Position numbers and translations under genes: made by a program | Shown here: piece after piece, positions 138 through 12,627 of the stretch | Position numbering within the stretch: the stretch's first letter is position 1 | How the letters are laid out: every line of letters begins with the position of its first letter | Origin: Candidatus Olsenella stercoravium | Lineage (GTDB): Bacteria; Actinomycetota; Coriobacteriia; Coriobacteriales; Atopobiaceae | Length of the DNA stretch: 39,240 nucleotides | Reading direction: 5' to 3' | Assembly: GCA_019116265.1 (NCBI GenBank) | Contig: DXBZ01000043.1 | Span: 1 to 39,240, forward strand | The notes under the pieces: model-generated | The model's database searches: none | The model's input: the letters and a program-made list of their open reading frames with translations, nothing else | What the model was told of the DNA's origin: nothing

Positions 138-425
138 ATGCGGGATCAGAAGCACCCCAGGCAGTTCACCGAGGAGTTCAGGAGGCAGATAGTCGCTCTG
201 GTGGACTCCGGCAAGCCCCGCGCCGAGGTGATGCGCGAGTACGACCTCGGCAAGTCGACGCTCGACCGCTGGATCCGCCGCGCGCACGCGTGCGGCTCCA
301 CCGCCGCCGCGGACAACCGGACGCCCGAGCAGAACCGCCTCATCGAGCTGGAGCGGGAGAACGCCCGCCTCAGGATGGAGGTCGATGTCCTAAAACAAGC
401 GGCGCTGATATTCGCACGAAAGTGA
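138..425 (+). CDS. IS3-family transposase OrfA (HTH)
   Basis: MRDQKHPRQFTEEFRRQIVALVDSGKPRAEVMREYDLGKSTLDRWI...; typical IS3 OrfA HTH followed by leucine-zipper-like ELERENARLRMEVDVLKQAALIFARK. Confidence 0.9.
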   Translation: MRDQKHPRQFTEEFRRQIVALVDSGKPRAEVMREYDLGKSTLDRWIRRAHACGSTAAADNRTPEQNRLIELERENARLRMEVDVLKQAALIFARK

Positions 426-1267
426 CGGTGATAGCGGCCAACGCCCGCCGCTACCCGGTATCAGCGCAGCGCAGGATCCTGGGCGTGCCCCGCTCCACGT
501 ACTACCGGATGCTCGCGCACCCGCCGCGCCCGAAGGCGCCTGACCCGATCGAGCCCGACGTGCTCGGCGCCTTCGAGGCGTCGCGCGGCGGGTGCGGTGC
601 CTGGAGGCTGAAGGTCGCCCTCGAGAGGGCCGGCATCACCGCCTCCAGGCGCAGGATATGCCGGATCATGAGGGAGAACGGCCTCTCGAGCGCGTACTCT
701 GGCCGCGCACCGAAAGGCGGCGACCGCCCCGTCCAGCCGCCTTCGGCGGAGAACGTCCTGGCAAGGTCCTTCGACGGCCACGCGCCACACACCCACGTCG
801 CGGCCGACCTCACCTACGTGCGCGCCGGCGGCTCGTGGTGCTACGTGTGCCTGCTCGTTGACCTCTACAACCGCGAGATAGTCGGCTGCTCGTGCGGGCG
901 GCGCAAGGACGCGCGGCTGGTCAAGGCCGCCTTCTCGAACGTGGCGTTCCCGCTCACCGCCATCGAGGTCTTCCACAGCGACAGGGGGTCGGAGTTCTGC
1001 AACGGGGAGGTCGACGCGCTGCCCTCGGCCTTCGGAATCGAGAGGTCGGTCTCGCGCCCCGGCAACCCCTACGACAACGCGGTCGTCGAGTCGACGAACA
1101 GGGTGCTCAAGCGCGAGCTGGTGCGCGGGCGGGCGTTCCCGTCGGAGGATCGGCTGAGGACGGAGCTCTTCGACTGGGTGAACTGGTGCAACAACTGCAG
1201 GCTGCACTTGACGCTCGGCTACATGACGCCGGCAGGGTTCAGGGAGGCGGGCCTGATCCTCTCGTAG
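422..1267 (+). CDS. IS3-family transposase OrfB (rve integrase core)
   Basis: Frame of ORF 290..1267. GTG at 422 overlaps the orfA TGA (GTGA), or expression by -1 frameshift. DDE residues: AADLTYV, FHSDRGSEF, DNAVVESTNRVLK. Confidence 0.88.
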   Translation: MTVIAANARRYPVSAQRRILGVPRSTYYRMLAHPPRPKAPDPIEPDVLGAFEASRGGCGAWRLKVALERAGITASRRRICRIMRENGLSSAYSGRAPKGGDRPVQPPSAENVLARSFDGHAPHTHVAADLTYVRAGGSWCYVCLLVDLYNREIVGCSCGRRKDARLVKAAFSNVAFPLTAIEVFHSDRGSEFCNGEVDALPSAFGIERSVSRPGNPYDNAVVESTNRVLKRELVRGRAFPSEDRLRTELFDWVNWCNNCRLHLTLGYMTPAGFREAGLILS

Positions 1268-1749: not shown

Positions 1750-3840
1750 CTATTGCTCCTTGAGCTGTTTTCCGTCCTTTGTGCTCCAGGCCTCCTGGCC
1801 ATTGGTCGGTCTCCCGATGATGACGTCTGCTGCCCTCGTAGGCGACTCGAATTCATGGTCCTTCTGGAAGACGCCGTCCACAATCGTGCCATTGGCGATG
1901 AGCTCTTCACGGTCTTCCGCGCTCCAGGGATGATGGGCTTCAAGCGAAGGCACTATGTGACTTGAGATACGCGACCCGGCCTGTACCGTAAATCCGCCGC
2001 TGCTCAGATAGCCTGATGCGTCAGACTCGTTGCCCGTGCAGAAATACAGGACTGTTTCGCTATTGTCGGGTTCAACAACGACTGGCACATCGGGAATATC
2101 AACATGCCAGACTATCGTGGCGTATCCGAGAAGCAAATCAGCGCGTTCAGAGATCAAAACCTCATTCCACACGTCAGAAGCAAGAGGCTCTACCATTGAC
2201 GGCAACCCGCCAGCACAGAGCGTTAGGCCCTTGGTCCTCTTGGTACCTGCCTTCTTAGACTTCCAGGCGGAATCGCTGATGGAGCCATTGAGCTTTTGGG
2301 GAATCACGGCAAGGTTACCGAGGGTGAGCAGCGTCCTGTCGCGCTGCTCCTCAGCCTCTTTGTTTCCGAGGCGACCCCAATGGTTGCGCCACTTCTTGGG
2401 CATGAGGTGCTCAAGGCTGTAGGGCTTGAACCCGAGCATGGTGGTACTTGACCCCTCCGGCCACATTGCCGTCTCGAGCAGGTAGAGGATGCCTCTGGCC
2501 TGTAACGAGGTAAGGCGGTGCTCCTCGTGGAAACTTGCCTTCAAAGCATCGTCGTCGGGATAGGTGGTCGTGACATCTTCCTTCGCGGCCAGTTTACCGA
2601 CAAGCTTGTCGGGCGTGTCGATGTCCTCCCGGATGAGCCCGTTGAAGAACCTGTTGTAGTTCTTCGTCGTCTCGCGGCAGACGATGCGTCGCATGATGAA
2701 GGATTCGAGGATGCCGAGCATCTTGCTAAATGTCTCTTCGTCGTTTGGCATGCAGCTTCTCAGGTAGAGGATGTACGGGATGAGCGTCGAATTCTGCAAA
2801 CCGAAGATGACGACGTTGATCCTGTCGGTTCCGGGCTCCTTGCCCACGACGCTGTCACAGGCGTCGGGATTGAAGGTCGCCTTGAACCACGTGGCGAACG
2901 GCTTTATGGAATCGAGCACGTACTGCTTGCTCCGATAGTGCCTGATCTCGATGAAGTTGCGATACGACTGGAATAGCTTCTCTACCTTTTCGTATGCCTT
3001 CTTGTCGTCGGCGGTGACCTCTATCTCGCTGTCCTCGACGAGGATCTGGAGCAATGAGTCGAAGAAGATGTCGATAAGGGACCTCTTGAAGCGGCCGGTC
3101 GTTATCTCCTGGTCCCAGTAGGCACGCGTCTCTCCATCGGCCTCGAACACGGCCTCCCAGTTTGCCTTGTAGAGGTCGATATCCTCGCTGCTGAAGAAGT
3201 AGTTCTTGAGCAGTTCGGCGGTGGTGAGGCGCACGCCGAGGGAGTTGATGGTGTCGAAGACCTGCTGCTCGTCCTCGCCGTCGTCCACGGTGATCATGAC
3301 GAAGGCCATGAGCTCGGTCATCTCGCTCAGATCCATCAGCTCGGCGGCCTCCTCGTCGATGCTCTCCTTGAAGTAGTTGTATGCACCGATCACGCCGGTC
3401 TCACCTTCGATGTCCTCGAGCTCGGTGAGGGCAAGTATCCTCTCGAAAGCAGGCCTGTCTTTGTGGTTGTGCCGCATCGACGGAGCGACGAAGTCCTTCT
3501 TCTTGTTCTTGGTGATGAAGAAGTTCTCGAAGGTGTCGATGTCATCGTTGAGGATGGCGATGACACGCATCATCACGAGGAGCGTCGTGAGTCGTTGCTG
3601 ACCGTCAACCACTACGAACTTGCCTGCGAAGCCCTCCTCGTTGGCACCCTTGACCGTCGTGTCTTTGAGGATGACTGAGCCGAGGAAGTACTCCTCATCA
3701 CGCTCGCACATCCCCTTGAGGTCTTCGAGGATGCGCTCCCATTCGGTCTTTCCCCATACGTATGCGCGTTGATAGAAAGGAATCTCCAACAGCTTGTTTC
3801 GCGGGAAGATGTCGCCAATTTGCTTCTTGTATGCCTGCAT
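1750..3840 (-). CDS. GmrSD-like DUF262 / DUF1524 (HNH) protein with C-terminal DUF4357-like domain
   Basis: IPFYQRAYVWG, VVVDGQQRLTTLLVMM (DUF262 DGQQR), EHLMPKKWRNHW ... LGNLAVIPQKLNGSISDSAWKSKK (DUF1524/HNH), C-terminus ...FESPTRAADVIIGRPTNGQEAWSTKDGKQL (DUF4357-like). Confidence 0.9.
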   Translation of the reverse strand: MQAYKKQIGDIFPRNKLLEIPFYQRAYVWGKTEWERILEDLKGMCERDEEYFLGSVILKDTTVKGANEEGFAGKFVVVDGQQRLTTLLVMMRVIAILNDDIDTFENFFITKNKKKDFVAPSMRHNHKDRPAFERILALTELEDIEGETGVIGAYNYFKESIDEEAAELMDLSEMTELMAFVMITVDDGEDEQQVFDTINSLGVRLTTAELLKNYFFSSEDIDLYKANWEAVFEADGETRAYWDQEITTGRFKRSLIDIFFDSLLQILVEDSEIEVTADDKKAYEKVEKLFQSYRNFIEIRHYRSKQYVLDSIKPFATWFKATFNPDACDSVVGKEPGTDRINVVIFGLQNSTLIPYILYLRSCMPNDEETFSKMLGILESFIMRRIVCRETTKNYNRFFNGLIREDIDTPDKLVGKLAAKEDVTTTYPDDDALKASFHEEHRLTSLQARGILYLLETAMWPEGSSTTMLGFKPYSLEHLMPKKWRNHWGRLGNKEAEEQRDRTLLTLGNLAVIPQKLNGSISDSAWKSKKAGTKRTKGLTLCAGGLPSMVEPLASDVWNEVLISERADLLLGYATIVWHVDIPDVPVVVEPDNSETVLYFCTGNESDASGYLSSGGFTVQAGSRISSHIVPSLEAHHPWSAEDREELIANGTIVDGVFQKDHEFESPTRAADVIIGRPTNGQEAWSTKDGKQLKEQ

Positions 3841-3858
3841 GATGCAATCCTAACCTGT

Positions 3859-4188
3859 TTAGAATGACTCTTCACTTAGAGCGTCAACCGATTCAGCAGC
3901 CTGTTCTTCGTCCTCCACGAACCATGAGGCGTCTATCGAATCGCAAGCCTTCTTAAAGATCGCTTTGACGGTGTCGAAGACATGTTTAGCCTGACCTTGG
4001 AGGCTATCTGCAGGTTGTACAAGCTCGTACTCAGGCTTCTCTTTCAACCCCATAAAGAAGAGCTTGTAGAAATCGTTAGTGCTAAACGTCAAGGTGCCCT
4101 TGCCAATTTCGAAGGCGGTTTCCCCATCACCAACAAGCACGAAGCGGTAACTATCTTGTGTGTCTTCGAAACTAACTTGCCTTTTCAT
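3859..4188 (-). CDS. Hypothetical 109-aa protein in the putative defence operon
   Basis: MKRQVSFEDTQDSYRFVLVGDGETAFEIGKGTL...; starts inside the end of the PHP-ATPase gene (17-nt overlap) and ends 18 nt before the DUF262 start; no family recognised. Confidence 0.75.
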   Translation of the reverse strand: MKRQVSFEDTQDSYRFVLVGDGETAFEIGKGTLTFSTNDFYKLFFMGLKEKPEYELVQPADSLQGQAKHVFDTVKAIFKKACDSIDASWFVEDEEQAAESVDALSEESF

Positions 4189-6562
4189 ATCGCTTCATCC
4201 TCCTCTGGATGGTATCAAGTCCGCCCTCGATGTTCTCTGCGACAGTCTCTAGCATGCTGTACTCGTCGCACTCGTATTCGAGGGCGCCACTTCGGATGCA
4301 CAAAGCACCGTCTTTCTTGCCGATGAAGATCACGTTGTCTACGTCGAGGTTTACGATGAACTGGGGGTTGTGCGTTATGAGGATCACCTGGCGCGAGCTG
4401 GCGATGTCACGGAACTCCCTTAGCACCGTCTCTTTGATTGCCTTTTGAGATATCTGATCTTCAGGCTGGTCAACAATATAGATGCCATCGCCAACGCTAC
4501 TGTCTGCCATCAGTGCGAAATACATTTGGGCGTTGTAGCCCTGTGATAGTTCGTTGTAGACGTCGTCGCCCTCGCGAATAATCGACTTCGCAGGTTGCAG
4601 CTTCTCGTCCAGCGCGCTTTCGAATCTGGTTGTGAGCACCGAAAGAGGATCTTCCTCACCATCGGGATAGTTGTTGATTGCATCAATGACGCTCTCGTAA
4701 CTGGACGTGAGGGTATCGAGGCTCTTGTGCTTGCCGATAAGCCCATCGATGAGCGAGGAGAGAAGCTTCGGCGTGATTGCATCAACTCCGAGTTTGCAAA
4801 CGAATTGCAGGTCACCGACAGGATTTGGGTCCACTGTTACGGGCATTGTTTCGAAGTCAAACGAGAAATCCTGCAAGCGGCGCTCGTGCATCACAGCATC
4901 TGCAACCATGCCGCCAATGCGGTCAATGGAATGCTGGTATTCCGCTTGCGACTTATGCGCATCGGTTACGACTTGGTTCTGTGCGGTCTCGAGCTCTGTA
5001 ACAGCCTCTTCAACCTTGTTGGCGACCCTGCCATCAAGGTGAATTCTGCTAACTACTTTTTGGTGTCGCCCGGTGATGCGTACGAGAGCTGCCAGCGCTA
5101 CATCAAAGTCCTTCTTGTCATCATCGGTGAGAACTTCTTCGTGCAGCGTGGCTGCATTAGATAGCTGGATACGAGAGGCTGTGATGTCGTTGATTAGACC
5201 ACTGTGTGGGCTTGAGTCATCCAGCTTTATTCCCTTGTCGAAGGTAACGCTCTCCGGTGCTTCTAATGGACGCTCTGCAGGAATGACGTATTCATAGAGC
5301 GATGCGAGGGCTTCCTGATATTCGCATGATCTCCTTAATGCCTGCAGGTACATATTGAACTGCCCCATGGCATAAAGCTTGTATGGCGCTGGCTCTATGG
5401 GTGCAGGAAAATGCTTGTCGAGTTGCTTTCTTGCTTTGCCAACACTGAGTTTGGCAAAGGTTTCCCTGATGGATTCCTGGCCGTCGAAACAGAGAACGTG
5501 GCCGTCAGGTATTGTTGTCCGAAGCGAGAGCCCCATGGAGGCAAGATACTTTTCCTGGCCTCTTTTAGCCGTTGGCTTCACTCCATCGAAACGATTGAGC
5601 GCATTAAGCAGGGAAGATTTGCCTATCGAATTGTCCCCAATAATTGCATTGATACCAGGCGATAGTGGGATGGTGATGTTTTCGCCACCTAGTGTGAGCT
5701 CAATTCCACCTAGCGCCTTCGTTGAGCCGCTAAAGAAGCTGGGCACAGTCTTAATGCGAGAAATGTCAGTCACCGCCATCGCCAATCCTTTGAAGGTCGG
5801 CAGGCACTTGAGATACGTAGGGGCGTAGTTGCGGTCGGCTTGGTTTGGCTGAGTGTCGTAGTTCGGATAGACGCTCCATACATGGCAGTCAGAACCAGTG
5901 ATGAAGCGAAGCTGCTCTTGTTGATCGTGAGTATAGGCGTAACTTCTGTTGAAGAGCTCGTTCCTTCGGTTCTTGTACTCGTAAGCCTCGAAGTACTCTA
6001 CGAACAGGAACTTGTTGTACAGATCCTCTCCGACACTGTTGGCATCGTTTGTCCTCGTGCGCGCAGAGCCGGGCGAATTCTTTTGATGCGCGATGGCAAC
6101 TATGTCTAGCCCGATATCGCGAATGATGCCCCAATAGGTATCCTCGTTGAAAGCGTTGCCGTCGTCATAATTTGGCTTACCATCCTTAAAGGGTATCGCA
6201 GTGCTTATGCGCTTAACGGCCTCCTCATCTCTGTCATCGAAGATCGTAACGACGTGTATGGGTTTGCTGCCCTCGTTCGTCTTGAAGCTCACTGTGAACT
6301 CTACGCCCGGAAGCACTCTTTGTAGGAACCGAGCATTATCCACCTTGCTGCGCAAAGCACCGTAAATGCTGTAATCGAAGCAATCGTGGTCGGTTATAGC
6401 GACCATATTGACCTCGTACTCTTCAAGCTTCTCGAAGAGAACGCCAATGTTTTCGACCGTTCCATCCTTGACCTTGTGCCCATCCTTATGAGCGGAAGCG
6501 GCAGAGTGGATATGAAAGTCTATCTTGACCGGTCTTTGGACTATTTGACCAGTTGATGCCAT
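4172..6562 (-). CDS. PHP-domain phosphoesterase fused to AAA/SMC-like ATPase (TrlF-like)
   Basis: PHP motifs DFHIHSAAS, AITDHDCFD, PGVEFTVS, IAHQKN, GSDCH. ATPase: Walker A GDNSIGKSSLLNAL, Walker B IYIVDQPEDQIS, LITHNPQF. Confidence 0.88.
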   Translation of the reverse strand: MASTGQIVQRPVKIDFHIHSAASAHKDGHKVKDGTVENIGVLFEKLEEYEVNMVAITDHDCFDYSIYGALRSKVDNARFLQRVLPGVEFTVSFKTNEGSKPIHVVTIFDDRDEEAVKRISTAIPFKDGKPNYDDGNAFNEDTYWGIIRDIGLDIVAIAHQKNSPGSARTRTNDANSVGEDLYNKFLFVEYFEAYEYKNRRNELFNRSYAYTHDQQEQLRFITGSDCHVWSVYPNYDTQPNQADRNYAPTYLKCLPTFKGLAMAVTDISRIKTVPSFFSGSTKALGGIELTLGGENITIPLSPGINAIIGDNSIGKSSLLNALNRFDGVKPTAKRGQEKYLASMGLSLRTTIPDGHVLCFDGQESIRETFAKLSVGKARKQLDKHFPAPIEPAPYKLYAMGQFNMYLQALRRSCEYQEALASLYEYVIPAERPLEAPESVTFDKGIKLDDSSPHSGLINDITASRIQLSNAATLHEEVLTDDDKKDFDVALAALVRITGRHQKVVSRIHLDGRVANKVEEAVTELETAQNQVVTDAHKSQAEYQHSIDRIGGMVADAVMHERRLQDFSFDFETMPVTVDPNPVGDLQFVCKLGVDAITPKLLSSLIDGLIGKHKSLDTLTSSYESVIDAINNYPDGEEDPLSVLTTRFESALDEKLQPAKSIIREGDDVYNELSQGYNAQMYFALMADSSVGDGIYIVDQPEDQISQKAIKETVLREFRDIASSRQVILITHNPQFIVNLDVDNVIFIGKKDGALCIRSGALEYECDEYSMLETVAENIEGGLDTIQRRMKRYEKAS

Positions 6563-6576
6563 AATCGCCTACCAAA

Positions 6577-8025
6577 TTATCTCGTACTGCGTCCCAGGCG
6601 TCTTGCCTGTAGCGTCTGCCATATTCGCCAGCATCCTTCGCACACCTCTTCTTCAAACCCCATACGATCGATGAGCACGGCCCTGTCTACGTAGTCGAGA
6701 GCGGTCTCTATGTTCTTTCCTGAACGTATTACATCGTCCACTCTCTCTATCACATCAGATTTCAAGGTGTCATCAATGGCGAGCTGTGCGGGATCCAGCA
6801 CTCTGATGTTGCCGACCTCCTTGGGCAATATCTCAAGCACTCCACCTCCATAGCTCCTGCCACAAAGCTCGGTGAATGCAAATGCGATGCTGTTATAATA
6901 TGCGATGATTGCCAATTCTGGGTCGACGCCGCCTTCGAATTTCATTCTGTGCATCGTGTCCGTCGAAATAGCGTTGCATCGGTTGAGCACAAACTTCGGA
7001 TAGAGGTTGTTCCTTCTAAGGAAGAAGGCGTCGGGTATCCAAATAGAAGGGACGGCATACCAATTATCGCGAATAGAGCACTTGTAGCCCTTGCCCTCCC
7101 CGCGCTCTTCGCCCTCATCGATATAGGCCTGCTGCGCCTTTGTCATCTTTTCGTATTGGCCGTCTTCGAGTACGAGCAACCTGGCTCTTTTGCCTTGGCT
7201 TCGGTTTCGTTCCCAGTCGTCGTTTGTGAAGAATACGCCTGACGCATGAGAACTTCTGCCGATGAGAGGAAGTGTGAAATCGTCTAACTCATACGTCGCT
7301 GATGTCTCATCGGTCAAAGAGAAGAATGAATTGTTGCCAGTTGTCACACCGACGTTGATTAGGGCAATGTCAGAAAACGGCACAAGCCGGTCATCCTTGT
7401 AGAGATTATTAAGTACCCTCGCGTCGCATGCATTTATGAAGTATCTCGTCCATTTCTCATCGAAAGATACGAAAGGTTGAAATTCGATTTCATCGAAGGA
7501 ACACCCCACAAGGTCTTCCACACTATCTGTCTCAATAACGCGGATGGAGCTTTGGCCAGCCCCCTTCTTGCCGATGAAAACGACGATTTCCTGTTCGATA
7601 TCGCTAAACACGAGCTTCGAGAATGCAAGTAGGGTGATGTTACTGTAGTGGCGTGCCAGGAACCTCCGCAGGTCTTCTGCATAGACGACTTGAAGAATCT
7701 CGGCTGGGATTACGAATGAGAGCGTCCCTCCCTCAGCAAGAAGGTCGGTGCATGCAACCATGAAGCCAACCCATGCGTTCACAAGCTTATTCGCTCTCAT
7801 TCCCTGCCGGTTCAGTATGTCCGCGAGCAGCGTGCGTTGCTCGGGCTCAAGGTATTGATAGCGAATGTAGGGCGGATTGCCGACGATGAGGTCATAACTA
7901 CCAGGCTTTGCCTCCTCGTAGAACTCAAAGAAGTCACGATGGTGGTAGTTCACGGTTGCTTTGCCGCATTGAATTCTCTGAGCGTTAAGCAAGGCTTCTT
8001 CATCTATCTCGATCGCATCCACCAA
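6577..8025 (-). pseudogene. N6-adenine DNA methyltransferase (Eco57I/TaqI-like), 5'-truncated
   Basis: DLIVGNPPYIRYQYL (motif IV NPPY), FVIPAEIL, C-terminal ELCGRSYGGGVLEILPKEVGNIRVL. The reading starts at VDAIEIDEEAL, so SAM motif I is missing; IS3 remnant abuts at 8026. Confidence 0.8.
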
Positions 8026-8230
8026 TGAATCTACCCCGATTCCGTTTACACCCCTACGCCGCCTTCAGGCGGCGATCGTCCTCGGGCCGGTTGGCCCGCT
8101 CGAACTCCTCGGGGCTGAGGTATCCCAGCGCCGAGTGGGTCCTTGCCCTGTTGTAGAAGCACTCGATGTAGTCGAATATCTCCAATGCCGCCTGATCCCG
8201 CGTCTCGAACGTGCGGGCGTGCACGCACCC
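8026..8230 (-). mobile_element. Remnant (3' end) of another IS3-family element, cut by IS3 copy 2
   Basis: Minus-strand frame ...RTFETRDQAALEIFDYIECFYNRARTHSALGYLSPEEFERANRPEDDRRLKAA* (stop at 8054), the C-terminus of an IS3 OrfB. Probable terminal repeat TGAATCTACCCCGATTCCGTTTACACC begins at 8026. Confidence 0.75.
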
Positions 8231-8285
8231 TGGATTGGCTACACTAGGTTGGACAGTTTCACGAGGGCCTACGGAAGGAGGCTCG

Positions 8286-8573
8286 ATGGCCGATCCAAAG
8301 CACCCGAGGCATTTCACCGACGATTTCAAGAGGCAGGTTGCGTCGCTCTACAACGCAGGGAAGCCGCCAAGCGAAATCATGCGCGAGTACGATCTCGGGA
8401 GCACGACGCTGCGAAGGTGGATCGACTCCATCAACGCCACCGGCTCGCCGCGCGCCGCCGACGACAGGACCCCCGAGCAGAACAGGATCATCGAGCTGGA
8501 GCGCGAGAACAAGAGGCTCCGCATGGAGGTCGACGTCCTAAAACAAGCGGCGCTGATATTCGCACGAAAGTGA
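8286..8573 (+). CDS. IS3-family transposase OrfA (HTH), copy 2
   Basis: MADPKHPRHFTDDFKRQVASLYNAGKPPSEIMREYDLGSTTLRRWI...VDVLKQAALIFARK; homologous to the protein at 138-425. Confidence 0.88.
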   Translation: MADPKHPRHFTDDFKRQVASLYNAGKPPSEIMREYDLGSTTLRRWIDSINATGSPRAADDRTPEQNRIIELERENKRLRMEVDVLKQAALIFARK

Positions 8574-9427
8574 CGGTGATAGCGGCCAACGCCGACCGCT
8601 ACCCGGTATCGGCGCGGTGCGAGATCCTCGGCGTGCCGCGCTCGACCTGCTGCTACCTCCGCTCGCGCCCGGGGCCCCCGCCCGCGCCGGACCCCGTCGA
8701 GCCCGACGTTCTCGCCGTCCACGCGGAGAGCAAGGGCAGGTACGGCGCGAGGAAGGTCAGGGCGTCGCTCGAGCGGCGCGGCGTCGTCGCGATCCGCAGG
8801 CGGATATCCCGCATCATGAGGGAGAACGGCCTCTCGAGCGCGTACGGGAGGAAGCGCTTCAAGGCGCACCCGGGCAAGCAGAACGGGGCGGAGCTGCCGA
8901 ACGTGCTCGACCGGTCCTTCGACGGGTGCGCTCCGCGCACGCACGTCTGCAGCGACCTCGCCTACGTGCGCGCCGGCGGCTCCCGGCGCCACGTCTGCCT
9001 GCTCGTCGACCTCTACAACAGGGAGATCGTCGGCCACTCGGCGGGAAGCAGCAAGGGGGCGAAGCTCGTCAAGGCGGCCTTCGCGACCCTGGAGTTCCCG
9101 ATCTCGGACATCGAGGTCTTCCACACCGACCGTGGCAGCGAGTTCGACAACGCCGAGATCGACCTCATGCTTGAGACGTTCGGCGTCGAGCGGTCGCTCT
9201 CCGCCAAGGGCTGCCCCTACGACAACGCGGCCGACGGGTCGACGAACAAGATACTCAAGGCGGAGCTGGTCTACAGGGACAGCTTCTCCGACCTCCGCGA
9301 CCTGCAGGCCAAGCTGTCCGACTACGTGCACCGGTGCAACAACATCAGGATCCACTCGACGCTCGGCTACATGAGCCCCGTCGAGTTCAGGAAGGCGGGG
9401 CTGATCCTGTCGAAACCGTCCAAATAA
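8570..9427 (+). pseudogene. IS3-family transposase OrfB, copy 2, DDE changed to DDG (probably inactive)
   Basis: VCSDLAYV and FHTDRGSEF retained, but YDNAADGSTNKILKAE where copy 1 has YDNAVVESTNRVLKRE. Confidence 0.8.
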
Positions 9428-9974: not shown

Positions 9975-10089
9975 GATTTGGACGATGCGCGATGATCTTT
10001 ACGCAAGCAAGGCACGGCTGGTCGTCATCGTGCAGAGCGACAGCATGAGCGGGTTCGACTCCGTTGCATCTCATAAGCTGTCGTCGTGA
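9964..10089 (+). pseudogene. Truncated MazF/PemK-type toxin remnant (41 aa)
   Basis: Start overlaps the antitoxin stop: MRGEIWTMRDDLYASKARLVVIVQSDSMSGFDSVASHKLSS*. The N-terminus resembles MazF/PemK (RGEIW...ARPVVIVQ...FDSV) then stops. Confidence 0.65.
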
Positions 10090-10108
10090 CGTATAGAGAT
10101 GGTGTCCC

Positions 10109-10492
10109 ATGGATTTCCAGAGCATAGACGCCCGGCTGATCTCGCGCCCCAGTGCCACCAAGGCCTTCCACGAGAAGTGGGGTTGGATGGTCTACTGGGT
10201 GGGCGGTAGGCAGTTCGCTTGCGAGTTCACGGCCTCCGCTGACGCCAAGGCACCCTACGCGGGACGTCACCTGCTGTCGCTCAAGTGCGACCCCGACCGC
10301 ATCCTCGAGCTGCGCGCTGAGTACCCGGGCGCGGTGCTGCCCGGCTACTACTCCGACGGGCGCATGTGGATCTCCGTCGACCTGGATGCCGATCTGCCCG
10401 AGGGCCTCGTGCTCGACCCGTGCGACATGAGCTACGACCTCGTTTTCTCCAAGTTGCCCAAGCGCGTTCAGTGGGAGGTTTCTGACGTGTAG
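10109..10492 (+). CDS. MmcQ/YjbR family DNA-binding-type protein
   Basis: FHEKWGWMVYWVGGRQFACEFTASADAKAPYAGRHLLSLKCDPDRILELRAEYPGAVLPGYYSDGRMWISVDLDADLPEGLVLDPCDMSYDLVFSKLPKR. Confidence 0.75.
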   Translation: MDFQSIDARLISRPSATKAFHEKWGWMVYWVGGRQFACEFTASADAKAPYAGRHLLSLKCDPDRILELRAEYPGAVLPGYYSDGRMWISVDLDADLPEGLVLDPCDMSYDLVFSKLPKRVQWEVSDV

Positions 10493-10574
10493 CGGCACGG
10501 CCTGCGCTGGCGACGGGGCGGTTGCCTGCAATGGGCGAGAGGAGCCCGTGCGAGAGGCACCCCGATGAATTGGC

Positions 10575-10923
10575 TTTCGTTCGTAGGAACGGGGACACAC
10601 GTCACCTGATGCCGTTCCAGCTCAATGCAGAAATCCAAGGCCATTGCATCCAGTTTGCGTGTAATGGCATTTCTCACCATCGTATAGGGGACGTCTGATT
10701 TGCTGTTCAGCGCGCCAACTGGAAATCTGCATCCAAACGAGATCGCCGACTTGCACGCTGGAAACACATCGAGGGGATGATAGCCCTTCGACGCGTTGGC
10801 AAACCTATCCATATTCGCGATGCCGCACAAATCTGCGCCGAGCGCAGACAAGATTTCCTTTACCCGTTTGCTGTCTATCGTACTGTTGCTCCGTAACCGC
10901 CACCTTGTCTTTGCCTGTTCCAT
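10575..10923 (-). pseudogene. Truncated epoxyqueuosine reductase-like (4Fe-4S) protein, N-terminal part only
   Basis: VKEILSALGADLCGIANMDRFANASKGYHPLDVFPACKSAISFGCRFPVGALNSKSDVPYTMVRNAITRKLDAMALDFCIELER; the C-terminal ferredoxin part is absent. Left boundary approximate. Confidence 0.65.
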
Positions 10924-10979
10924 ATCATATAGCAGATGCTGCGGACGGGCTCGCTCTGAGCTTCTGTCATGATAGCGAA

Positions 10980-11065
10980 TGCCGATTTCGGCTTCTGCCA
11001 TAAATTGGTTGATACCGATTTCGGTTTCCGCCATAATAAGGTGAATGCCGATTTCGGTATCCGCC
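10980..11065 (+). repeat. Three tandem ~33-bp repeats, each carrying CCGATTTCGG
   Basis: CCGATTTCGG (inverted CCGA..TCGG) at 10982-10991, 11015-11024 and 11048-11057, exact 33-bp period, directly upstream of the DUF4143 ATPase. Confidence 0.8.
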
Positions 11066-11081
11066 AGAATCGAGGTCGAGG

Positions 11082-12455
11082 ATGTATCGCAACGCCATGA
11101 TAAAGCTCCTCGCTTGGAGCGACAGCCCCCATCGCAAGCCGCTCATTGTCAACGGTGCCCGTCAGGTGGGAAAGACATGGCTCGTCCTTACTTTTGGGGC
11201 GAATCGCTACGATTCCGTTGCCCACGTCGTGTTCTTGGAGAACGAGGATATGAAACGGGCTTTCGCGGGAAGCCTCGATGCGGATCGCTTGCTTACCATC
11301 ATCGGCGCGGCGACGGGAACCAATCCCCGTGACGGTAGAACGCTCGTGTTTCTCGACGAGATTCAGGAGTGCCCGCGTGCCATCACCGCTTTGAAGATGT
11401 TCTGCGAGCGGCGGCCAGACGTGCCTGTTGTCGCAGCGGGATCCCTCCTCGGCGTGGCTCTCAACCGGGAACGTGAGAAGGTTGGGGACGGCACGTCGTG
11501 GCCCGTCGGGAAGGTCGATTACCTTGATCTGCATCCGCTCTCGTTCGACGAGTTCGTGCGCGAAATCGGCAACTCTGCACTTGCAGACGCGGTTTCCCAG
11601 GGTGACGCCGATCTCATCAGCGTCTTCTCCGAGCGTCTGACTGATCTTTTGCGCATCTACTACTACGTGGGAGGAATGCCCGAGGCGGTGTGCCGCTACA
11701 GCGAGACCGGGGATTTTGCGGCGGCACGGGCGGTGCAGCAGACGCTGCTTGCGGATTACGAGCATGACTTCTCGAAGCACGTCGAGAGTGCTCTCGAGGT
11801 GGAACGCATCCGTCAGACCTGGCATTCGGTGCCCGTTCAGCTTGCGCGGGAGAGCGACCTTCGTCGGTTCAGCTATGCATCCGTCCGAGAAGGCGGACGC
11901 GGGCGGGACTATCGAGATGCTGTCGCATGGCTTGTCGATGCTGGCCTGGTTACTAAGATTCCGCGTGTGACCAAACCGGGGATCCCGCTCAAAGGGTATG
12001 CCGACGAGATGTACTTCAAGCTCTACCTGCTTGACATCGGACTTCTGGGCGCGGCGACGGGGCTCGAGCCTCGCGTGCTCGTGGAGGGGAACCGGCTCTT
12101 CACTGAGTACAAGGGCGTCTATGCCGAGCAGTTCGTGTGCCAGCAGCTCGTGGCGGGCGGTGCGGTGCCGTACTACTGGTCGGCGGACGGCAAGCAGAAG
12201 AAGGGCGAGGTCGACTTCCTGCTCGAGGTTGCGGGGTGCCCCGTCCCTGTTGAGGTCAAGGCAGACGAGAACATCGCCGGGGGAAGCCTCGCCGCATTCG
12301 TGCGGGACTATGGGCTCGGGCGTGCTGCGCGCTTCTCGCTGCGCGGGCTGAAGAAACAGGACTGGCTGGTAAACGTGCCGCTCTACGCCGCCAATGCCTT
12401 TCCGGACATTCTTGAGCGGCCGAATATAAGCCACAATATGCCACTACGGACATAA
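11082..12455 (+). CDS. AAA_14 / DUF4143 ATPase
   Basis: KPLIVNGARQVGKTWLVLTFG (Walker A), TLVFLDEIQECPRAITALK (Walker B), VVAAGSLLGVAL, C-terminal KKGEVDFLLEVAGCPVPVEVKA. Confidence 0.92.
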   Translation: MYRNAMIKLLAWSDSPHRKPLIVNGARQVGKTWLVLTFGANRYDSVAHVVFLENEDMKRAFAGSLDADRLLTIIGAATGTNPRDGRTLVFLDEIQECPRAITALKMFCERRPDVPVVAAGSLLGVALNREREKVGDGTSWPVGKVDYLDLHPLSFDEFVREIGNSALADAVSQGDADLISVFSERLTDLLRIYYYVGGMPEAVCRYSETGDFAAARAVQQTLLADYEHDFSKHVESALEVERIRQTWHSVPVQLARESDLRRFSYASVREGGRGRDYRDAVAWLVDAGLVTKIPRVTKPGIPLKGYADEMYFKLYLLDIGLLGAATGLEPRVLVEGNRLFTEYKGVYAEQFVCQQLVAGGAVPYYWSADGKQKKGEVDFLLEVAGCPVPVEVKADENIAGGSLAAFVRDYGLGRAARFSLRGLKKQDWLVNVPLYAANAFPDILERPNISHNMPLRT

Positions 12456-12627
12456 TGGGGGCGCAGTTTGGATATGTGCGATTGCTCCGCCGGCGTCCAG
12501 GGTTGCCGACGGTTCCGGACGAAGGAGTCCTAGGATTCTGCTGAGTGCGGAGATACGCCGGCGCCCTGAACCGCGCCGACCAACACAGTTTGAGTTGTTG
12601 GAAGCCTGCCTCATCGCGCATATCTGA

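What the first reader, a model, noticed from the sequence alone, without database searches (positions are those of the whole stretch)
1750..8025. Candidate undescribed defence operon: N6A MTase - PHP/AAA ATPase - 109-aa protein - GmrSD-like DUF262/DUF4357
Four minus-strand genes are packed with 14-nt, -17-nt and 18-nt junctions in a visibly lower-GC block, next to a phage scaffold remnant and bracketed by IS3 copies. Each recognised component belongs to families used in nucleic-acid conflict: Eco57I/TaqI-type methyltransferase, PHP nuclease/phosphatase fused to an SMC-like ATPase, and DUF262-DUF1524 (GmrSD type IV restriction). I do not recognise this exact set as a named system. PHP motifs, Walker motifs, DGQQR and the HNH-like EHLMPKKW all appear intact.
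Basis: partly seen in the sequence, partly recalled or inferred. Interest (0 to 1): 0.88.

Follow-up and report, generated by a model that had tools for sequence, protein, structure and literature searches.

The report
Two-gene add-on cassette for restriction systems
Inside the reported four-gene block sits a two-gene cassette, a nuclease-like enzyme fused to a DNA-repair-type ATPase plus a roughly 100-residue partner protein; in gut bacteria it recurs as a tightly coupled unit just behind many unrelated DNA-restriction systems, and it looks like a portable back-up antiviral effector whose partner is, in some lineages, wired to DNA-damage signals.

Summary
The four ORFs and their junctions are real, but they are not one conserved four-gene operon. 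The Eco57I-type methyltransferase is a 5'-truncated relic (about 62 residues lost, including SAM motif I), cut off beside IS3 sequences. The DUF262/DUF4357 gene is not found behind this pair in any other locus examined. The conserved unit is the PHP-ATPase plus the 109-aa protein. An overlapping small ORF follows the PHP-ATPase in 48 of 49 homologous loci (usually -17 or -23 nt), against 6.6% of control ORFs. The partners form one family that no database names. The pair moves as a cassette: homology blocks coincide with exactly the two genes while the flanks change, and in one locus both genes were replaced together. It often lies directly behind type I, II/IIG and III restriction-modification, BREX (BrxL), Mrr or RloB genes. 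In one clade the partner is fused to a LexA-like S24 autoprotease; in another it ends in an SSB-type DEDIPF tip. Best reading: a restriction-linked back-up effector (RNase AM-like PHP domain on a RecN/AriA-like ABC ATPase) held by a cognate regulator tied to the ssDNA/DNA-damage state. This is a new variant of the PHP-ATPase (Ppl/TrlF) kind. No function has been tested.

The parts
4172..6562 (-). PHP-ABC/SMC ATPase, 796 aa: putative effector of the cassette
   Evidence: TrlF/Ppl-like but below the NCBIfam cut-offs; AF2 pLDDT 89; folds like RNase AM/BAD_1165 plus RecN/SMC/AriA heads
5771..6529 (-). PHP domain (about residues 12-264); H17, H19, D58, H59, E88, H103, H159, E195, D225 and H227 conserved
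   Evidence: 44-45 of 45 homologues
5615..5638 (-). Walker A GDNSIGKS (residues 309-316)
4457..4480 (-). Walker B/D-loop region YIVDQPED (residues 695-702)
3859..4188 (-). 109-aa small partner, acidic (net -11): cognate regulator of the PHP-ATPase
   Evidence: Homologues overlap the PHP stop in 48 of 49 loci; one family; purifying selection; AF2 pLDDT 77, no PDB fold match
4172..4188 (-). 17-nt overlap of PHP 3' end (RYEKAS-stop) and partner start (MKRQV), the commonest overlap in the family
6577..8025 (-). M.Eco57I-like N6A methyltransferase, 5'-truncated relic (no SAM motif I); NPPY kept
1750..3840 (-). GmrSD-type DUF262/GmrSD_C protein with C-terminal DUF4357; separate neighbour
8054..8329 (-). 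Relic of an IS3-family transposase C-terminus next to the broken end of the MTase
   Evidence: sequence reading, inferred
8285..9427 (+). IS3-family element (two transposase frames)
138..1267 (+). Second IS3-family element downstream of the block

Best explanation
The functional unit is a two-gene cassette, PHP-ATPase followed by a ~100-aa partner, translationally coupled by a short overlap. SHOWN: the pair is conserved as a unit, moves as a unit between different flanks, keeps all PHP and ABC-ATPase catalytic residues, is under purifying selection, and often lies directly behind restriction-modification or BREX operons. INFERRED: it is a portable back-up (probably abortive) antiphage effector. 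The RecN/AriA-like ABC head with its coiled coil senses a nucleic-acid state or failure of the neighbouring restriction system; ATP binding and hydrolysis then release the RNase AM-like PHP phosphoesterase to degrade RNA or nucleotides. The partner is the cognate regulator, most likely an inhibitor, that reports the ssDNA/DNA-damage state. In one clade it carries a LexA-like S24 autoprotease, so RecA filaments could destroy it. In another it carries an SSB-type C-terminal tip, so it could bind SSB-interacting proteins. In the window the PHP and 109-aa genes look intact, while the MTase that probably belonged to the associated restriction system is broken.
For: Overlapping partner ORF in 48/49 PHP loci against 23/346 control ORFs; partner families homologous (hhalign 93.8%, E 1.7e-7, 84 columns). 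Cassette exchange: around the cassette L051 and L052 align only over 9992-12620, which is PHP start -3 to partner stop, at 91% nt identity, with a IIG-like+Eco57I MTase pair upstream in one and hsdM-hsdS-hsdR in the other; L066 and L100 share flanks at 91% and 84% but both cassette genes are replaced (PHP 30% identity, partner not alignable). Upstream genes: HsdR, Eco57I MTase, IIG-like, BrxL, Mrr, GmrSD+EcoRI MTase, D12 MTase+AlwI, type III Res, RloB. S24 fusion in six partners, one clade, CAGDG site, Ser and Lys conserved. SSB-type tip in 5 of 58 partners against 2 of ~4,240 other ORFs; the host SSB itself ends DEDIPF. Catalytic residues; fold matches RNase AM, RecN, PARIS AriA. dN far below dS for both genes.
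Against: No functional data. The window's 109-aa protein has neither the S24 domain nor the SSB-type tip, so its regulatory role is carried over from relatives. About half of the loci have no recognisable restriction gene directly upstream. Defence islands bring unrelated defence genes together by chance, and some defence genes also lie downstream. Inhibitor versus activator is undecided. The partner fold is only modestly confident (pLDDT 77).
Confidence: 0.5

Rival explanations
1. One reading: one four-gene defence operon (MTase, PHP-ATPase, 109 aa, DUF262/DUF4357) acting together.
For: Tight co-directional packing and shared low GC; MTase-PHP-small recurs in L050 and L051.
Against: No other locus has the four genes; the closest relatives have only the pair; the MTase is truncated; the DUF262 relatives in the order are found independently.
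Confidence: 0.07
2. Toxin-antitoxin/addiction pair: the PHP-ATPase is a toxin, the partner a labile antitoxin, maintained for its own persistence or to stabilise mobile elements, with the restriction linkage incidental.
For: Two overlapping genes, small acidic fast-evolving partner, co-replacement as a pair, S24 fusion as a trigger for antitoxin loss.
Against: Recurrent tight placement behind many modification-based systems; large ATPase of a type known in defence. It overlaps with the best explanation, because abortive defence uses the same logic.
Confidence: 0.2
3. The partner is not an inhibitor but a co-effector or recruiting subunit that brings the PHP-ATPase to ssDNA, forks or restriction-generated ends (SSB-tip mimic).
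For: SSB-type tip in one clade like the host SSB end; conserved stoichiometric coupling.
Against: The tip is absent in most lineages including the window; S24 fusion fits destruction of the partner better.
Confidence: 0.18
4. Housekeeping DNA-repair or nucleotide-salvage pair that merely sits in defence islands.
For: PHP fold closest to RNase AM/phosphoesterases, head like RecN.
Against: Patchy distribution (4 of 398 genomes in a phylum sample with a distant query; under 20 of 301 in the order have full-length relatives), swapping between loci, diverse restriction flanks.
Confidence: 0.05

Closest known systems
Ppl (PHP-ATPase single-gene antiphage protein; NCBIfam NF042955)
   Same: N-terminal PHP domain fused to an SMC/Rad50-like ABC ATPase; defence context
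   Different: Ppl is filed as a single protein; the window protein scores 44.8 bits against a 1000-bit cut-off and comes with a small partner gene
TrlF-family AAA-like ATPase (NF045780) and Spaf_1101 family (NF045781)
   Same: Same PHP plus ABC architecture; a Klebsiella plasmid TrlF lies next to a type II restriction system
   Different: 145 of 350 bits and 70 of 475 bits; three TrlF-type plasmid loci examined have no overlapping small partner
PARIS (AriA ATPase + AriB)
   Same: Works-like: ABC ATPase sensor plus nuclease, a back-up to restriction triggered by anti-restriction proteins (as described in PMC12839542); AriA is among the fold matches
   Different: Effector is PHP, fused to the ATPase, not a separate TOPRIM protein; partner unrelated
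PrrC/RloC anticodon nucleases linked to type I restriction (own knowledge)
   Same: Works-like: ATPase-nuclease guarding a restriction system
   Different: No HEPN/anticodon-nuclease domain; linkage extends to type II, type III and BREX; comes with a partner gene
BREX auxiliary effectors catalogued in PMC12839542
   Same: Back-up effectors next to BREX core genes; cassette found behind BrxL (L057, L060, L111)
   Different: That survey's main text does not mention PHP proteins

Membership tests
Ppl (NF042955) | Whole-protein score over the curated cut-off (1000 bits) | tested here: not met
   44.8 bits, C-terminal stretch only
Ppl (NF042955) | PHP domain fused to ABC ATPase | tested here: met
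TrlF (NF045780) | Whole-protein score over the curated cut-off (350 bits) | tested here: not met
   145 bits; relatives 141-195 bits
TrlF (NF045780) | Gene without overlapping small partner | tested here: not met
   Window has the partner; three TrlF-type plasmid loci lack one
PARIS | Separate TOPRIM-type AriB gene beside AriA | tested here: not met
   No AriB match; AriA only a weak ATPase match, 31.6 bits
GmrSD type IV restriction (DUF262 gene) | GmrSD_N and GmrSD_C domains over Pfam cut-offs | tested here: met
   118.8 and 50.5 bits against 33.2 and 23
GmrSD type IV restriction (DUF262 gene) | Cleavage of modified DNA | not testable with these tools
   -
Type II MTase (M.Eco57I-like) | Complete SAM-binding motif I and catalytic NPPY | tested here: not met
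   NPPY present; motif I region missing by truncation
PHP-ATPase/small-partner cassette (described here) | PHP-ABC ATPase followed by an overlapping partner of the A2/A6 family | tested here: met

The most novel reading that the evidence does not exclude
An undescribed two-gene defence module that plugs in behind nearly any restriction or BREX system and whose interchangeable partner reads the cell's ssDNA state, by RecA-triggered S24 self-cleavage in one lineage and by mimicking the SSB C-terminal tip in another, to release a PHP nuclease when primary defence fails.
Probability: 0.3. Interest if true: 0.85.

Novelty: new variant of a known kind. Interest (0 to 1): 0.62.

Why it matters
PHP-ATPases (Ppl, TrlF) are known defence-type proteins whose trigger I could not find described. 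This family adds a cognate partner whose fusions (S24 autoprotease, SSB-type tip) point to a specific signal, RecA filaments or ssDNA, and so make the trigger directly testable. The repeated plug-in behind unrelated restriction types would extend the PrrC/PARIS idea of a guard for restriction systems to a further, portable effector.

Tried and rejected
Four-gene synteny: rejected. Naming through Pfam, NCBIfam or PADLOC: no family for the partner, below cut-off for the ATPase. PDB by sequence: nothing. Partner fold search: no match at E<=0.001. First genome-contig scan with the single protein found nothing; the alignment query worked. Phage and plasmid collections: only partial, distant matches. 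Extending the SSB-tip sample by a phylum search gave no new members. Idea that the SSB-type tip is general: rejected, it is confined to one clade. Idea that S24 fusion arose repeatedly: rejected, one clade. Literature: no held paper found that describes it; the 2020 ABC-ATPase classification (PMC7544218) is not held and could already list PHP-ABC genes.

Full report
WHAT IS IN THE WINDOW. The four minus-strand ORFs exist at the stated coordinates with junctions of +14, -17 and +18 nt, in a block of about 50-58% GC within a contig of 65-70% GC. The window is contig C26 of a genome in 169 contigs; its nearest named relatives (Adlercreutzia, Paraeggerthella) place it in the Coriobacteriia. Pfam gives GmrSD_N, GmrSD_C and DUF4357 for the 696-aa protein, M_Eco57I_C and Eco57I for the 482-aa protein, only ATPase fragments for the 796-aa protein and nothing for the 109-aa protein. 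NCBIfam puts the 796-aa protein nearest TrlF, Spaf_1101 and Ppl, but far below their cut-offs. PADLOC gives Orf5/HEC-06-type matches for the DUF262 protein, a type II MTase match, and only weak matches for the PHP-ATPase.

THE METHYLTRANSFERASE IS A RELIC. Aligned with 541-aa homologues in L050 and L051, the window MTase starts at about their residue 63 and lacks the segment with EPSCGDGVF (SAM motif I). Its open frame continues only 13 codons upstream into sequence that reads as IS. NPPYIRYQ is kept. So the first gene of the 'operon' is broken beside IS3 sequences.

THE CONSERVED UNIT IS A PAIR. In 301 genomes of the order, the closest full-length PHP-ATPase homologues (71, 68 and 48% identity) each have a 109-aa homologue overlapping by exactly 17 nt, and none has the DUF262 or MTase gene within the roughly 7-9 kb examined on either side. 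A wider search gave 63 loci, mostly in Bacillota, Mycoplasmatota and Coriobacteriia, and one in a viral contig. Of 49 full-length cases, 48 have an overlapping ATG ORF of 60-300 aa at -8 to -50 nt (20 at -17, 14 at -23), against 23 of 346 other ORFs of at least 250 aa in the same loci (6.6%). In the exception, L111, the PHP frame stops early, but the partner is present in the usual place. Even distant relatives (25-35% identity; L041-L047) have the partner at exactly -17. Partners of the two main groups are homologous (93.8%, E 1.7e-7). Both genes are under purifying selection: L051/L052 dN/dS is about 0.06 for PHP and 0.09 for the partner, and the partner evolves faster. Three NCBI TrlF-type loci on plasmids have no such partner.

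IT MOVES AS A CASSETTE. L051 (Lachnospiraceae) and L052 (Lachnospira) share 91% nt identity over exactly the two genes (3 nt before the PHP start to the partner stop); a separate, weaker match lies further downstream. Upstream, L051 has a 999-aa protein of the IIG-like type plus an Eco57I MTase; L052 has hsdM, hsdS and hsdR. L050/L052, L057/L064 and L063/L066 show similar boundaries. L066 and L100 share RloA/RloB-type flanks upstream (91%) and the downstream flank (84%), but both cassette genes were replaced together (PHP 30% identical, partners not alignable).

WHAT IT SITS BEHIND. Of 32 loci with a same-strand gene of at least 100 aa within 300 nt upstream, 12 have restriction, modification or BREX genes: type I HsdR (L052, L053, L062), Eco57I MTase or IIG-like (L050, L051, L055), BrxL (L057, L060, L111), Mrr (L061), GmrSD-HNH with an EcoRI-type MTase (L088), and a D12 MTase with AlwI (L097). 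Four more have RloB-like genes (L066, L069, L075, L100; L075 is below the Pfam cut-off). Type III Res genes precede the cassette in L041, L042 and L043, and a ResIII helicase in L047. Some of these loci are related (L050/L051; L066/L069/L100), so the independent number is smaller. The first downstream gene is also sometimes a defence gene (AbiD, a type II REase), as expected in defence islands. Several loci have no restriction gene nearby, and the first gene beside L048 is a UPF0236 gene.

THE PARTNER. The window protein is 109 aa with net charge -11. AlphaFold2 gives a beta-beta-beta-alpha-beta-alpha fold (pLDDT 77, with a low-confidence acidic tail) without a PDB match at E<=0.001. Two lineages decorate it. 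In six loci forming one supported clade it is fused to a Peptidase_S24 domain with CAGDG, SMEPT/SMAPK and CKR(Y/F) motifs, the expected cleavage site, Ser and Lys of LexA-type autoproteases. In the other main group, five of 58 partners end in a [DE]x[IL]PF-type acidic tip, a form found in only two of about 4,240 other ORFs, those two being one gene seen twice; the window genome's own SSB ends YDEDIPF. Both decorations point to RecA/ssDNA biology. The window protein has neither; it ends ...LSEESF.

THE EFFECTOR. Ten PHP ligand or active-site positions, Walker A, Q-loop, signature glycine, DQPED and the H-switch are conserved in nearly all of 45 sequences. The AF2 model (pLDDT 89, pTM 0.73) matches RNase AM and BAD_1165 phosphoesterases for the PHP part, and RecN, SMC and PARIS AriA heads for the ATPase part. 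Hence the inference that it acts as an ATP-gated RNase or nucleotide phosphoesterase.

MECHANISM. Best supported: a restriction-linked back-up effector held by a cognate, DNA-damage-responsive regulator. Shown: pairing, coupling, co-transfer, linkage, intact catalytic sites, S24 and SSB-type decorations in relatives. Inferred: defence function, substrate, inhibitory role of the partner, trigger. Role of MTase and DUF262: neighbours; the MTase family is also found directly upstream in L050/L051, so the window probably once had a restriction system there.

KNOWN OR NEW. PHP-ATPases are a known defence-type kind (Ppl, TrlF). The partner family, the cassette behaviour and the two decorations were not found in the libraries or in the held literature: the 2026 BREX survey, PMC12839542, has no mention of PHP in its main text, and the other searches are negative. 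The 2020 ABC-ATPase classification could not be read, so priority is not certain.

Noticed in passing
L042, L043, L045, L047, L097 (partner genes): Partners of one clade of PHP-ATPases end in an SSB-type acidic tip (EEDIPF, DEDIPF, DDAIPF, DDEIPF, DDLPF); L041 ends GDIPF.
   Followed up: partly
L053, L054, L056, L058, L068, L070 (partner genes): Partner fused to a LexA-like Peptidase_S24 domain with a conserved CAGDG site, single origin.
   Followed up: yes
L087:6748-7566 (same gene as L039:6237-7055): A 272-aa protein ending YDDDIPF about 2.4 kb from a PHP cassette in Olsenella; identity not determined.
   Followed up: no
L136:641-6384 (Klebsiella michiganensis plasmid): A TrlF-family PHP-ATPase without small partner lies beside a cytosine methyltransferase and a type II restriction endonuclease, so restriction linkage may extend to TrlF proper.
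   Followed up: no
L081:9571-9942 and L081:12751-13296: An XRE-type HTH gene ends just upstream of the Paraeggerthella PHP-ATPase start, and a similar-looking, degraded stretch follows the partner gene: possible duplication or integration scar.
   Followed up: no
window 1750-3840 and loci L113-L123: Relatives of the window DUF262 protein (47% identical, about 577 aa, without DUF4357) occur with near-identical scores in many genomes of the order, suggesting a recently spread mobile gene.
   Followed up: no
window 11082-12455: AAA_14/DUF4143 ATPase matching PADLOC candidate PDC-S01 strongly (513 bits) a few kb from the block.
   Followed up: no
L093:445-1371, L102:9077-9925: Fic-domain genes directly upstream of the cassette.
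   Followed up: no
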